A stretch of 64,000 nucleotides of DNA from positions 2,618,001 through 2,682,000 of the forward strand of contig NZ_CP159258.1 in the NCBI RefSeq assembly GCF_040438925.1, given 5' to 3'. This document shows positions 32,154-51,499 of the stretch, piece after piece. A program made the position numbers and the translations under genes. The first letter of the stretch is position 1. Each line of letters starts with the position of its first letter. This DNA comes from Pseudomonas sp. MYb327. GTDB lineage: Bacteria > Pseudomonadota > Gammaproteobacteria > Pseudomonadales > Pseudomonadaceae. The notes beneath the pieces were generated by a model that worked only from the letters and a program-made list of their open reading frames with translations, did no database searches and was not told the origin of the DNA.

Positions 32154-32408
32154 ATGAAAGCACTCATCGAAGGTTTCATCAAGTTCCAAAAAGAAGTTTT
32201 CCCGCAGCGTTCGGACCTCTTCAAATATCTCGCCACTACCCAAAATCCTGAAACGTTATTTCACCCTAGCGTCAGATTGGCCCTTGAACAGAAAAAGCTG
32301 AATCTACATGGTTGGGTCTATGACATCGAAACGGGATCGATCATCGCGCTCGATGGCAAAACCAACACATTCGTTTCATTGGCGGAGTTTCCGGAAACAA
32401 AGGCATAG
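32154..32408 (+). pseudogene. Beta-carbonic anhydrase with the zinc site deleted (paralogue of 34608-35270)
   Basis: The 84 codons start MKALIEGFIKFQKEVFPQRS like the intact carbonic anhydrase at 34608. After about residue 36 (TLF) they jump in frame to HPSVRLALEQ and LNLHGWVYDIETGSI, which in the intact enzyme begin at residue 163. The missing 126 residues contain all zinc ligands (C39, D41, H98, C101 of the intact copy), so it cannot be an anhydrase. The ends have diverged from the intact gene, so the duplication is not recent. The frame is intact and could still yield a small protein. Confidence 0.85.
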
Positions 32409-32476
32409 CGCTCACCTGCTCCCTAATAACATGTCCTGCTCGACCACGATGTCCCCACACGTTCGGAGTGAAAGTC

Positions 32477-32953
32477 ATGGCTGAATCTGAAACCCGTCCC
32501 CCACTACCCCCTTTCGATCGCGAATCGGCAATTCTCAAAGTCCGGCTTGCCGAGGACGGCTGGAACAGCCGCGATGCAGAAAAAGTCTCACTCGCCTACA
32601 CACCCGATACCCGATGGCGCAATCGCGTCGACTTCGCGGTAAACCGGGCCGAGGCAGCGGCATTCTTAACACGTAAATGGAACAAGGAACTGGACTATCG
32701 ACTGATCAAAGAGCTGTGGGCCTTTACCGATAACCGCATCGCCGTGCGTTACGCCTACGAATGGCACGATGACTCAGGTAACTGGTTTCGCTCTTACGGA
32801 AACGAGAATTGGGAGTTCGCAGAAAATGGCCTGATGGCCCATCGCTTCGCTTGCGTCAACGACATGCCAATCAAAGAGTCGGAGCGAAAATTTCGCTGGC
32901 CGCTAGGTCGTCGGCCTGACGATCATCCAGGGCTCTCTGATTTAGGCCTGTAA
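32477..32953 (+). CDS. DUF1348 / nuclear transport factor 2-like family protein
   Basis: The 158-residue cytoplasmic protein has the SnoaL/NTF2-like cone fold of the DUF1348 family: AEDGWNSRDAEKVSLAYTPD, WRNRVDFAVNRAEAAAFLTR, RIAVRYAYEWHDDSGNW and YGNENWEFAENGLM. The biochemical role is unknown; members often appear beside LysR genes and small oxidoreductases. GGAG is eight bases before the ATG at 32477, preferred over the GTG at 32468. It converges with the cupin gene, with a shared hairpin at 33027. Confidence 0.85.
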   Translation: MAESETRPPLPPFDRESAILKVRLAEDGWNSRDAEKVSLAYTPDTRWRNRVDFAVNRAEAAAFLTRKWNKELDYRLIKELWAFTDNRIAVRYAYEWHDDSGNWFRSYGNENWEFAENGLMAHRFACVNDMPIKESERKFRWPLGRRPDDHPGLSDLGL

Positions 32954-33026
32954 ATAGTGGTGTATGGCATTCAATGCCGCGGCAGAGAAAGTGGTGAAAT
33001 CACGGGTTCAAGAGGATGGGTACCGC

Positions 33027-33054
33027 TTCGCCTCGTCAGCCAGATCGAGGCGAA
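33027..33054. terminator. Bidirectional terminator-like hairpin between convergent genes
   Basis: TTCGCCTCG (33027-33035) pairs perfectly with CGAGGCGAA (33046-33054). It lies between the DUF1348 gene and the convergent cupin gene. Confidence 0.6.
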
Positions 33055-33061
33055 AGCTTCA

Positions 33062-49502: not shown

Positions 49503-49607
49503 TGCAACAGTATTGTGCTAGACCTACAACATTACTGCGATGACGTTGAAGCAGAAAATTCCGCCGTTTTCCACTTGTCGTTACCTACCGGGGAGGAGCG
49601 CATGTGA
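49503..49607 (+). pseudogene. Tail of a lost PAS histidine kinase directly before the second FixJ regulator
   Basis: In one frame, CNSIVLDLQHYCDDVEAENS and then AVFHLSLPTGEERM end at a TGA that overlaps the GTG of the regulator. The last part matches the end of the intact kinase at 27.6-29.4 kb (EGAAFHLSFPSGNE), and the first part resembles an internal piece of it (RRNKIVLDHQYDT). The catalytic ATP-binding core between them and everything upstream is missing. The regulator has therefore lost its adjacent kinase. Confidence 0.7.
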
Positions 49608-50254
49608 GTCAAGATTCTCTCTCAGATTCGCCTCTTGATAATGGGCCAATCGTCTTTGTCGTTGATGATGACGAGTCCGTGCGCATCGCATTAAGCAGTC
49701 TTTTCCGTTCGATGGATGTACGGGTGGAGACGTTCGCCTCCGCGACCGAATTCATTCGGCGCCCCGACCCACAAGCCCCGTGCTGCCTGGTTCTGGATGT
49801 CCGCCTGCAAGGTTCCAGTGGCCTGGACTTCCAGCGCGAATTGCGCGAGGCAGCGAATAAATTACCCATCATTTTCATATCCGGGCATGGCGACATCGCG
49901 ATGTCTGTTAAAGCAATGAAGGCCGGCGCCCTGGACTTCCTGGTCAAACCTTTCCGCGACCAAGACCTCCTGGACGCGGTATCGGCCGCACTCAGGACAG
50001 ATGAAAAGCGCCGTGAACTGGCCAAGGGGGATGCCGGATTGCATGCTTGTTATCAGTCCCTGACTGCTCGGGAACGCGAAGTCATGGCCTATGCCGTGAA
50101 GGGCCTGATGAACAAACAGATCGCCAGCGAGATCTCTATCAGTGAAGTCACTGTCAAAATTCACCGTGGTAACGCGATGAAGAAAATGCAGGCAAAAACG
50201 TTTGCTGATCTGGTCCGAATGGCTGAATCGTTAGGGATAGGAGGGAAGCACTGA
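49604..50254 (+). CDS. FixJ-family response regulator without an adjacent kinase (paralogue of 29451)
   Basis: This 216-residue protein has a receiver (VVDDDE, phosphoacceptor D65 in CLVLDVRLQG, FLVKPFRDQD) and a FixJ/LuxR helix-turn-helix (LTAREREVMAYAVKGLMNKQ, SEVTVKIHRGNAMKKM). The start is GTG at 49604 with GGGAGGAG ahead. The kinase gene that once preceded it is reduced to a remnant, so phosphate may come from the paralogous kinase at 27.6 kb, whose cognate regulator is about 70 percent identical. The second cyanase gene follows 433 bases later and may be its target. Confidence 0.92.
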   Translation: MSQDSLSDSPLDNGPIVFVVDDDESVRIALSSLFRSMDVRVETFASATEFIRRPDPQAPCCLVLDVRLQGSSGLDFQRELREAANKLPIIFISGHGDIAMSVKAMKAGALDFLVKPFRDQDLLDAVSAALRTDEKRRELAKGDAGLHACYQSLTAREREVMAYAVKGLMNKQIASEISISEVTVKIHRGNAMKKMQAKTFADLVRMAESLGIGGKH

Positions 50255-50687
50255 GTCAATTCCATGCGCAGGTATTTGAGTCCTTTTGGAGTGCCACGCG
50301 GGTGCCCATCCGTATCTGCCCATCGTCCCCCTCCTACCACTCCAAGGCATCGCACTAAATTTTCTTATTGAAACGTCAGTAAATATCTCAGCACGATTCA
50401 AAAATCTGACTCCTCATACCCAGAACTAATACTTCAGTATTGGTCACTACGACTCACGCGCTAAACAATTCGATCTTAGGTCCAAGTGCTTATTCGCGCC
50501 CGAAGTCATATTCTGTATTCAAGCAAACGAAAACACTGACCCGTAGATATTAGAGACTAAAGCACCGACTTCGAAAACAATTACAAATAGAGGTTCGCCC
50601 GTTACCAACAGTTTTAACGATATTCGCAAAAACTAATACGTTACTAATTGACGTCATCAGTTAGATTAACTCCATTGGAGAAATCCC
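50255..50687. other. AT-rich promoter region between the FixJ regulator and cyanase copy 2
   Basis: About 430 bases without a gene, clearly lower in GC than its neighbours. It contains the ATACT-N2-AGTAT repeat at 50429 and blocks shared with the region after 30613. It lacks the ATATCG-N8-CGCTAT element of the cynR-type promoter, so cyanase 2 is probably regulated differently from cyanase 1. Confidence 0.5.
50429..50440. promoter_or_regulatory. ATACT-N2-AGTAT inverted repeat upstream of cyanase copy 2
   Basis: ATACTTCAGTAT, within AATACT-TC-AGTATT, a perfect palindrome with 6-base arms. It is located 248 bases before the cyanase start and downstream of the FixJ regulator, mirroring the copy at 30714. 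Confidence 0.5.
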
Positions 50688-51155
50688 ATGAAACAGTCCC
50701 ACATAAATAACGAAGTGAGCATTGCATTGACGACCGAAATCCTGCAGGCCAAAGCCAGCAGAAATCTGTCATGGCAGGACCTTGCGGACGGTACAGGGTT
50801 GGGCCTGGCATACGTGACCGCCGCCCTCCTCGGTCAACAACCTTTACCAACTGACGCAGCCAGGATTATCGGCGACAAACTGGGTCTGAACTCCGAGAGC
50901 GTGGCTTTGCTGCAAATCATTCCACTGCGCGGAAGTTTGTCAGGTATCCCAAGTGATCCGACCATCTACCGTTTCTACGAGATGATCCAGATCTACGGAA
51001 CCACGCTCAAAGCTCTGGTTCACGAGCAGTTCGGCGACGGCATTATTAGCGCAATAAACTTCAAACTGAACATGCAGAAAGTTGCAGACCCGGAGGGTGG
51101 CCACCGTGCGGTGATTACGCTCGACGGCAAGTTCCTGCCGCTGCGTCCTTTCTGA
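50688..51155 (+). CDS. cynS: Cyanate hydratase (cyanase), copy 2
   Basis: This 155-residue cyanase has the catalytic residues intact: R95 and E98 in DPTIYRFYEMIQIYGTTLK and S121 in FGDGIISAINF. It decomposes cyanate with bicarbonate to ammonia and CO2. The N-terminal 80 residues differ at many positions from copy 1 while the C-terminal half is almost the same in protein, although codons differ, so the similarity reflects constraint rather than a very recent duplication. TTGGAG precedes the ATG. It is followed by a DUF2790 gene, but no carbonic anhydrase or glutaredoxin gene. The promoter is unlike that of copy 1. Confidence 0.97.
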   Translation: MKQSHINNEVSIALTTEILQAKASRNLSWQDLADGTGLGLAYVTAALLGQQPLPTDAARIIGDKLGLNSESVALLQIIPLRGSLSGIPSDPTIYRFYEMIQIYGTTLKALVHEQFGDGIISAINFKLNMQKVADPEGGHRAVITLDGKFLPLRPF

Positions 51156-51250
51156 CGGTCCAACAGGCATAACGGGCTGTGGTCCGTGTGACCAACTAAA
51201 AGTCGCTCAAAATTAACGATTTAGCGCTTGTTAAACTGGAGATAATTATC

Positions 51251-51499
51251 ATGAAAAAATTCCTGTTCTTTGTCTTGTCCGTTACTGCCGCTTTATCTAC
51301 ATACACGCAGGAAGCTAACGCCGCTTCTACAGTCGACATTTATAAATATGGAATGCCGTTAGACGTTGCTCACGTAATCGAAATATCACCGGCAGCAGAT
51401 GTCTGCGGGCCCACACCCGTTCGAATGACATACAACGACTCCCGCGGCGAAGTACACATTTTGGAATTCCGTGTCATCGGCACCGGCTGCACTAATTAA
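51251..51499 (+). CDS. DUF2790 small exported protein, copy 2
   Basis: The 82-residue protein has a signal peptide (MKKFLFFVLSVTAALST, cut probably after ANA) and the DUF2790 motif order YKYGMPLDVAHVIEI, DVCGPTPVRMTYNDS, GTGCTN. Both cysteines are conserved. It follows cyanase copy 2 by 95 bases, repeating the gene order of locus A. GGAG is ten bases before the ATG. Function is unknown; repeated linkage to cyanase is the only clue. Confidence 0.85.
   Translation: MKKFLFFVLSVTAALSTYTQEANAASTVDIYKYGMPLDVAHVIEISPAADVCGPTPVRMTYNDSRGEVHILEFRVIGTGCTN

What the first reader, a model, noticed from the sequence alone, without database searches (positions are those of the whole stretch)
32154..51499. 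Three cyanase loci and two DUF2790 copies within 18 kb, one intact operon, one reduced, one dead
Seen directly: an intact cynS-DUF2790-cynT-grxC operon (33.7-35.6 kb), a second cynS-DUF2790 pair (50.7-51.5 kb), a fused cynS/DUF2790 remnant beside cynR (43.5 kb) and a gutted carbonic anhydrase gene (32.2 kb). Repeated cyanase plus DUF2790 linkage suggests that this uncharacterised exported protein belongs to cyanate metabolism, and that the region has undergone repeated duplication and loss.
Basis: partly seen in the sequence, partly recalled or inferred. Interest (0 to 1): 0.75.

Follow-up and report, generated by a model that had tools for sequence, protein, structure and literature searches.

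The report
Cyanase operons with a stress protein
A Pseudomonas chromosome carries two working and one dead copy of a cyanate-destroying enzyme gene, each beside a small, probably secreted protein of unknown function that relatives also keep beside bleach-defence genes, which hints that the protein helps cells survive reactive oxidants.

Summary
In detail: an intact cynS-DUF2790-cynT-grx operon, a second conserved cynS-DUF2790 pair, a gutted cynT, and a cynS-head/DUF2790-tail remnant beside cynR. Two relatives carry the whole genes at the same places, so internal deletions (378 and 594 nt) explain the losses. In a genus sample, 46 of 152 cynS rows have a same-strand DUF2790 within 1.4 kb (about 0.0015 per gene expected). 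These DUF2790 genes are not one lineage (AU p = 5e-6), so the pairing arose more than once. But DUF2790 is not a cyanate-only protein. In 13 of 26 loci of the reactive-chlorine membrane protein RclC, a DUF2790 gene lies within about 1.1 kb of rclC; one genome has cynS-DUF2790-cynT-grx-rclC in one tight run. Ten rclC genomes tested lack RclB (0 of 10) and RclA over cut-off (0 of 10). The dead copy's DUF2790 groups with the rclC-linked ones. My reading: DUF2790 is a secreted accessory of oxidant/electrophile defence, in RclB's place beside RclC, and cyanase joins because cyanate accompanies (pseudo)hypohalous chemistry. Linkage is shown; function is inferred. A relative, PA3229 (PDB 4F98), is strongly MexT-dependent.

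The parts
32154..32408 (+). cynT remnant: 84-codon open frame, 378 nt missing inside relative to G262 and G135; most of the Pro_CA domain gone
33620..33661 (+). CynR-type operator/promoter block upstream of cynS1, now without an adjacent cynR (role as CynR site inferred)
   Evidence: consensus of 46 upstream regions where cynR directly precedes cynS, plus this one; long pattern twice in the window; its core twice in the 6.15-Mb genome at up to 2 mismatches
33753..34220 (+). cynS1, cyanase
   Evidence: Pfam; TIGR00673 190.5 bits over cut-off 113.3
34323..34571 (+). DUF2790a, 82 aa with an apparent signal peptide (read by eye)
   Evidence: Pfam PF10976; AlphaFold2 model; closest solved structure 4F98/PA3229
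34608..35270 (+). cynT, carbonic anhydrase
   Evidence: Pfam Pro_CA
35300..35563 (+). grx, glutaredoxin 3
   Evidence: TIGR02181 101.8 bits over cut-off 90
42505..43398 (-). cynR, LysR-type cyanate regulator
   Evidence: NF008416 422 bits over cut-off 277
43411..43452 (+). CynR-type block at the original cynR/cynS divergent promoter
43532..43701 (+). dead cynS-head/DUF2790-tail remnant, 594 nt missing relative to G262 and G135
   Evidence: its DUF2790 tail groups with rclC-linked DUF2790
43967..45328 (-). glutathione reductase (not RclA)
   Evidence: NF004776 654 bits over cut-off 480; RclA NF040477 215.6 bits against cut-off 740
45835..46416 (-). rclC (DUF417), reactive chlorine resistance membrane protein
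   Evidence: NF040476 331.8 bits over cut-off 275; Pfam
46586..46927 (-). AhpD/CMD-family peroxidase-like protein, possibly RclX-like (identity not tested)
47000..47935 (+). AraC-family regulator, RclR-like but below the RclR cut-off
   Evidence: NF040475 158.7 bits against cut-off 400
50688..51155 (+). cynS2, divergent cyanase under purifying selection, no CynR-type block upstream
51251..51499 (+). DUF2790b

Best explanation
The region is an oxidant/electrophile-defence island and not a cyanate-nutrition cluster. Cyanase and its carbonic anhydrase remove cyanate; glutaredoxin and glutathione reductase repair thiols; RclC and a small secreted DUF2790 protein guard the envelope. DUF2790 would act in the place that RclB (DUF1471) holds beside RclC in E. 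coli: a small periplasmic protein, here usually with a conserved cysteine pair, induced under oxidant or electrophile stress. Cyanase is recruited because cyanate accompanies thiocyanate/hypothiocyanite or hypochlorite chemistry. Shown: gene content, linkage, more than one origin of the pairing, selection, deletions. Inferred: secretion, disulfide, stress role, RclB-like job, source of the cyanate.
For: DUF2790 beside cynS in 46 of 152 rows, from more than one DUF2790 lineage (AU p 5e-6; at least 6 changes of cyn linkage on the tree). DUF2790 within about 1.1 kb and on the same strand as rclC in 13 of 26 RclC-type loci, against 0 of 17 distant-DUF417 loci with any DUF2790, cynS or cynR in the fetched stretch. 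G184 has cynS-DUF2790-cynT-grx-rclC with gaps under 110 nt. The window's dead DUF2790 groups with rclC-linked copies (SH-aLRT 90). In ten rclC genomes RclB-family DUF1471 is found in 0 of 10 and RclA over cut-off in 0 of 10. PA3229, the DUF2790 of known structure, falls 6.1 log2 units without MexT (PMC12607905, passages) and is up under a thio-enynone (PMC10848761, one passage). E. coli under HOSCN induces rclABC and, 10- to 50-fold, cynTSX, and gor mutants are HOSCN-sensitive (PMC12096828, section 5 part 1).
Against: I saw no phenotype for any DUF2790 with cyanate or HOSCN. The E. coli authors judged cynT induction most likely due to SCN- or OCN- in their reagent, and cyanate genes rose in only one of two P. 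aeruginosa HOSCN studies. A PA3229 deletion had small, mixed effects on antibiotic MICs (PMC5527654 passages). In 13 of 26 rclC loci no DUF2790 gene is that near, and in 106 of 152 cynS rows there is none. In the window itself the DUF2790 nearest rclC is the dead one, on the other strand, and rclC is not in the cynS operon. 4F98 lacks both cysteines. The DUF2790 model has no Foldseek match under E 0.001 outside its own family. The RclR-like regulator is below cut-off.
Confidence: 0.5

Rival explanations
1. DUF2790 is a dedicated cyanate-metabolism protein, for example a periplasmic cyanate binder or part of uptake.
For: 46 of 152 cynS rows have it next door, downstream of cynS in all 46, mainly in two operon orders, R-T-S-D and R-S-D-T.
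Against: 5 of 8 DUF2790 matches in this genome lie away from cynS. It stands beside rclC without cynS or cynR in the fetched stretch in several loci, e.g. L297, L298, L301, L303. The 18 rows taken to be cynFABDS-type show none within the 1.5 kb held on each side.
Confidence: 0.15
2. The several cynS copies serve nitrogen nutrition from cyanide or cyanate, and DUF2790 is a passenger.
For: P. fluorescens NCIMB 11764 and P. monteilii BCN3 have three cynS paralogues (PMC11049912 passages). G135, G262 and G178 have a nitrilase close to the TIGR04048 cut-off (472.8-496.2 bits against 502.6; that TIGR04048 marks the Nit1C type is recalled) 7-8 kb from a cynS.
Against: Those three nitrilase-near cynS have no DUF2790 next door (L112, L115, L127). 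G000, with two cynS-DUF2790 pairs, has no nitrilase near that cut-off (best 219 bits). That paper found no significant association of cynS with nit1C.
Confidence: 0.15
3. Shared mobility: DUF2790, cynS and rclC sit together only because this is a gene-shuffling hot spot, without joint function.
For: The region has paralogues, deletions and rearrangements between relatives.
Against: Tight same-strand spacing, different DUF2790 lineages in the same slot, and purifying selection on both pairs.
Confidence: 0.12

Closest known systems
E. coli rclABC/rclR reactive-chlorine and HOSCN defence
   Same: An RclC equivalog (NF040476), an RclR-like AraC gene nearby, and in relatives a small, apparently exported protein next to rclC; E. 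coli co-induces cynTSX under HOSCN.
   Different: No RclB-family DUF1471 and no RclA over cut-off in 10 of 10 rclC genomes tested. DUF2790 stands where the small protein would be, glutathione reductase is nearby, and in some genomes cyanase genes share the run. E. coli RclB and RclC lack cysteines.
E. coli cynTSX/cynR
   Same: CynR, carbonic anhydrase and cyanase; divergent cynR promoter.
   Different: DUF2790 and glutaredoxin in the run, no room for a transporter gene between them; cynT after cynS; the cynS1 block is 9 kb from cynR.
Pseudomonas cynFABDS
   Same: Cyanase.
   Different: Fis-family sigma-54-dependent regulator and ABC transporter (PMC6627978, abstract and passages). I take the separate cynS clade of 18 rows, without DUF2790 in the stretch held, to be this type (the assignment is inferred).
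P. aeruginosa PA3229 (PDB 4F98)
   Same: DUF2790 family, E 7.9e-14; named.
   Different: Lacks the cysteine pair; MexT-dependent.
P. aeruginosa rclR-rclX (PMC13423671 passages; of PMC7950407 I saw the listing and an empty term search)
   Same: AraC-type regulator beside a peroxiredoxin-like gene, protective against HOSCN (that RclR is AraC-type is recalled).
   Different: PAO1 is reported to lack homologues of the E. coli Rcl proteins; orthology to the window's pair was not tested.

Membership tests
Cyanase operon (cynR/cynS/cynT) | CynS with both domains | tested here: met
Cyanase operon (cynR/cynS/cynT) | CynR and a conserved divergent operator block | tested here: met
   NF008416 422 over 277; block conserved across 46 upstream regions, twice in this genome; binding not tested
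Cyanase operon (cynR/cynS/cynT) | Carbonic anhydrase cynT | tested here: met
   Pro_CA, intact at 34608-35270; the 32.2-kb copy is broken
DUF2790 (PF10976) | Profile match over gathering score | tested here: met
   76 and 76.7 bits over 27
DUF2790 (PF10976) | Fold of 4F98 | tested here: met
rcl reactive-chlorine defence | RclC equivalog | tested here: met
   331.8 bits over 275; five further loci also over cut-off
rcl reactive-chlorine defence | RclR regulator | tested here: inconclusive
   RclR is the best of the families listed, but 158.7 bits against cut-off 400
rcl reactive-chlorine defence | RclA reductase | tested here: not met
   0 of 10 genomes over cut-off, one control genome over it; the local reductase is glutathione reductase
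rcl reactive-chlorine defence | RclB (DUF1471) | tested here: not met
   0 of 10 genomes, E. coli control positive
rcl reactive-chlorine defence | Induction by, and protection from, HOCl/HOSCN | not testable with these tools
   needs culture

The most novel reading that the evidence does not exclude
DUF2790 proteins are the Pseudomonas counterpart of RclB: small secreted, cysteine-paired partners of RclC in hypothiocyanite/hypochlorite defence. Pseudomonas has in places fused this defence with cyanase, glutaredoxin and glutathione reductase into one run, because cyanate made by (pseudo)hypohalous oxidants is a real part of that stress and not a reagent artefact.
Probability: 0.35. Interest if true: 0.8.

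Novelty: new variant of a known kind. Interest (0 to 1): 0.6.

Why it matters
DUF2790 is a genus-wide family (in 288 of 298 genomes sampled) with a solved structure; in the passages I saw of the three papers found by its name it has no function. RclB and RclC protect E. coli by unknown means. Linking both to cyanase gives a testable role and suggests that the cynTSX induction seen with HOSCN in E. coli, put down there as most likely a reagent effect, may reflect a physiological coupling.

Tried and rejected
Rejected: RclA identity of the 43.9-kb reductase (it is glutathione reductase). Rejected: one ancestral cynS-DUF2790 pair copied three times. DUF2790a has no PHROG match. Led nowhere: the genome-contig scan for named carriers (2 weak loci of other phyla); a literature search for PA2051-PA2054 (no paper); term searches in P. 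aeruginosa HOSCN and NaOCl papers for cyn genes or PA3229 (none found); a search for the 43.5-kb joined form in 57 genomes, 36 of them same genus, own included (only the window's own genome matched across the join). Foldseek found no match outside the family at E under 0.001; no DUF1471 entry is named among the 50 rows shown, which proves nothing.

Limits. cynS rows: 152, of which one locus counts twice (L040 and L139), from about 182 matches by my addition's column; about 30 lower-scoring ones were not counted, three of which do have DUF2790 next door and entered the DUF2790 trees (L254, L255, L257). L011-L040 reach only 1.5 kb each side. The RclC link was noticed in G000, G262, G184, G135 and G034 before it was counted; without those genomes it is 8 of 18 loci. 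The Fisher value (0.0004) ignores relatedness. Only 17 of the 49 lower-scoring DUF417 matches served as control; one that did not, a 28-bit decayed fragment in G262, does lie beside a DUF2790. One search's distances are between profile matches, not gene ends. DUF2790 trees rest on about 100 columns; in the second tree I kept about a quarter of the L041-L070 rows. The second AU test, without the RSD copies, was set after seeing the tree; the 6 and 5 changes are minimum counts. Chance per cynS assumes 5.3 DUF2790 per 6.2-Mb genome, my estimate. The cysteine-pair count is 50 of 50 cyn-linked, 9 of 10 rcl-linked, 53 of 58 others, after three fragmentary rows were left out; four of the five misses among the others come from my pattern starting too late (compare).
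Full report
WHAT IS THERE. The window lies in a 6.15-Mb single-contig genome, Pseudomonas by the names its close protein matches bear. The intact operon is cynS 33753-34220, DUF2790 34323-34571, cynT 34608-35270 and grx 35300-35563. A second pair, cynS2-DUF2790b, lies at 50688-51499. At 43532-43701 a cynS head of about 11 codons runs into the tail of a DUF2790 gene with one stop inside. At 32154-32408 a cynT gene keeps its ends but not its middle. The genome has 8 DUF2790 matches and only these 2 cynS matches. cynS1 and cynS2 share 120 of 155 residues.

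HOW THE BROKEN COPIES AROSE. Genome G262 is collinear with the window over 25.1-51.5 kb, with some insertions and gaps. At the two broken places it has 378 nt more inside cynT and 594 nt more between the cynS head and the DUF2790 tail, and so has G135. Both are best read as internal deletions in the window's lineage. Against G262 the live genes are under strong purifying selection (dN/dS 0.025-0.13), DUF2790a and b included, so cynS2-DUF2790b is a maintained pair.

REGULATION. In 46 upstream regions where cynR directly precedes cynS, a block reading roughly CTATAGG...ATGC...ATTG-ATATCGGTCTTGG is conserved. The long form matches twice in the window, upstream of cynS1 and at cynR, with none in 100 shuffles; its core occurs twice in the whole genome at up to 2 mismatches. 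cynS1 therefore seems to have kept its CynR site although cynR is 9 kb away (inference: control in trans). cynS2 has no such block upstream.

DUF2790 AND CYANASE ACROSS THE GENUS. PF02560 is in 162 of 298 genomes, PF10976 in 288 of 298. I took the cynS matches that one search listed (top 30 itself, the rest). Of 152 cynS rows (window's two included, one locus twice), 46 have a same-strand DUF2790 within 1.4 kb, downstream of cynS in all 46; about 0.0015 per gene is expected (with my estimate of 5.3 DUF2790 per genome). By CynS clade, counted by eye: 0 of 18 in the separate clade taken to be the cynFABDS type, 0 of 8 in a second group, 16 of 55 in the clade ordered cynR-cynT-cynS(-DUF2790), 30 of 71 in the clade mostly ordered cynR-cynS(-DUF2790)-cynT. 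The first two groups were mostly seen only to 1.5 kb on each side. Presence changes at least 18 times on the CynS tree, which is poorly resolved.

MORE THAN ONE ORIGIN. On the DUF2790 tree the cyn-linked copies do not form a clade (49 rows against 86, AU p 5.2e-6). They fall in the R-S-D-T group, in R-T-S-D groups that sit among unlinked copies, and in the R-S-D copies of G262 and G135 with the window's dead one. Cyn linkage needs at least 6 changes. The tree has about 100 columns, so exact branching is weak.

THE RCL LINK. Between the dead copy and cynS2 the window has glutathione reductase, an RclC equivalog (NF040476, 331.8 bits over 275), an AhpD-type gene and an RclR-like regulator below cut-off. 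DUF417 is in 60 of 298 genomes. Its 26 matches over 200 bits I call RclC-type (6 tested, 6 over the RclC cut-off). In 13 of these 26 loci a same-strand DUF2790 lies within about 1.1 kb: in 9 directly downstream, 58-107 nt away, and in 4 upstream with grx, or cynT and grx, between. Two of the 13 DUF2790 copies look degraded (L306, L317). cynS or cynR lies within the stretch held in 9 of 26 and gor in 10 of 26. Of 17 distant DUF417 loci none has DUF2790, cynS or cynR. G184 carries cynS-DUF2790-cynT-grx-rclC in one direction with gaps under 110 nt, with gor and cynR further on. The dead DUF2790 of the window groups with rclC-linked copies (10 rows, SH-aLRT 90). Ten rclC genomes have no DUF1471 (0 of 10; E. 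coli control positive) and no RclA over cut-off (0 of 10). In the window itself rclC is not in a cynS run; the nearest DUF2790 is the dead one, on the other strand.

WHAT DUF2790 MAY DO. It is a short protein with an apparent signal peptide (read by eye) and a small beta domain (model pLDDT 84). The only clear structural match is 4F98, PA3229 of P. aeruginosa. The cysteine pair is kept in 50 of 50 cyn-linked and 9 of 10 rcl-linked rows but is missing in 4F98. PA3229 is among the most MexT-dependent genes (log2 -6.1, PMC12607905, passages), falls in parS and parR mutants (PMC3848899, passages), is in a gene table of the oxidative-stress regulator PA2206 (PMC3557286, one passage) and is up under a thio-enynone (PMC10848761, one passage; that this compound is an electrophile is my reading). 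In P. alloputida KT2440 four of seven DUF2790 genes respond to lanthanides (PMC11520305, passages). A PA3229 deletion changed antibiotic MICs little and in both directions (PMC5527654, passages). Together this suggests secreted stress proteins.

WHY CYANASE. In E. coli, HOSCN induces rclABC and raises cynTSX 10- to 50-fold; gor mutants are HOSCN-sensitive; RclB is a small periplasmic DUF1471 protein and RclC a DUF417 protein, and the two may work together (PMC12096828, section 5 part 1 and passages). The authors think the cyn induction most likely comes from SCN- or OCN- in the reagent. Cyanate detoxification genes rose in one of two P. aeruginosa HOSCN studies according to that paper. The runs seen here put the same parts together physically, which argues that the coupling is real in some Pseudomonas. 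That cyanate forms during HOSCN decay is recalled chemistry, from no call.

AGAINST A NUTRITION READING. G135, G262 and G178 have a cynS 7-8 kb from a nitrilase just under the TIGR04048 cut-off; those cynS have no DUF2790 next door (L127, L112, L115). G184 has such a nitrilase on another contig. The window's genome has two cynS-DUF2790 pairs and no nitrilase near that cut-off (best 219 bits).

VERDICT. DUF2790 is not a cyanate-only protein; it is a recurrent partner of two modules, cyn and rcl, which meet in this island. Multi-copy cynS is already in print (PMC11049912 passages). I found no print link of DUF2790 with cyanase or RclC: one search gave three DUF2790 papers, of which I read the term passages only, and searches gave nothing on it.

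Noticed in passing
window 35506-36538 (-): A Fer2/NAD-binding oxidoreductase is split over two frames; relatives G262 and G135 have about 780 nt more at 36453-36456, a third deletion in this region.
   Followed up: partly
window 36688-42362: Two glutathione S-transferases, an isochorismatase-like hydrolase, a DJ-1/PfpI protein and an alpha/beta hydrolase lie between the cyn loci, in keeping with electrophile defence.
   Followed up: partly
L112, L115, L127: In G262, G178 and G135 another cynR-cynS-cynT set without DUF2790 lies 7-8 kb from a nitrilase just under the TIGR04048 cut-off, so one genome seems to keep separate cyanases in nitrilase-linked and stress-linked settings.
   Followed up: partly
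L005 1231-1824: In the window's genome another DUF2790 gene sits just upstream of a small exported protein and a DsbD/CcdA-like gene and is divergent from a response regulator (names read by eye).
   Followed up: no
window 32468-32953: A DUF1348 (SnoaL-like) protein follows the dead cynT; a close copy lies in the matching place in G262 (97.5% identical) and one follows a cynT copy in G184 (read by eye); function unknown.
   Followed up: no
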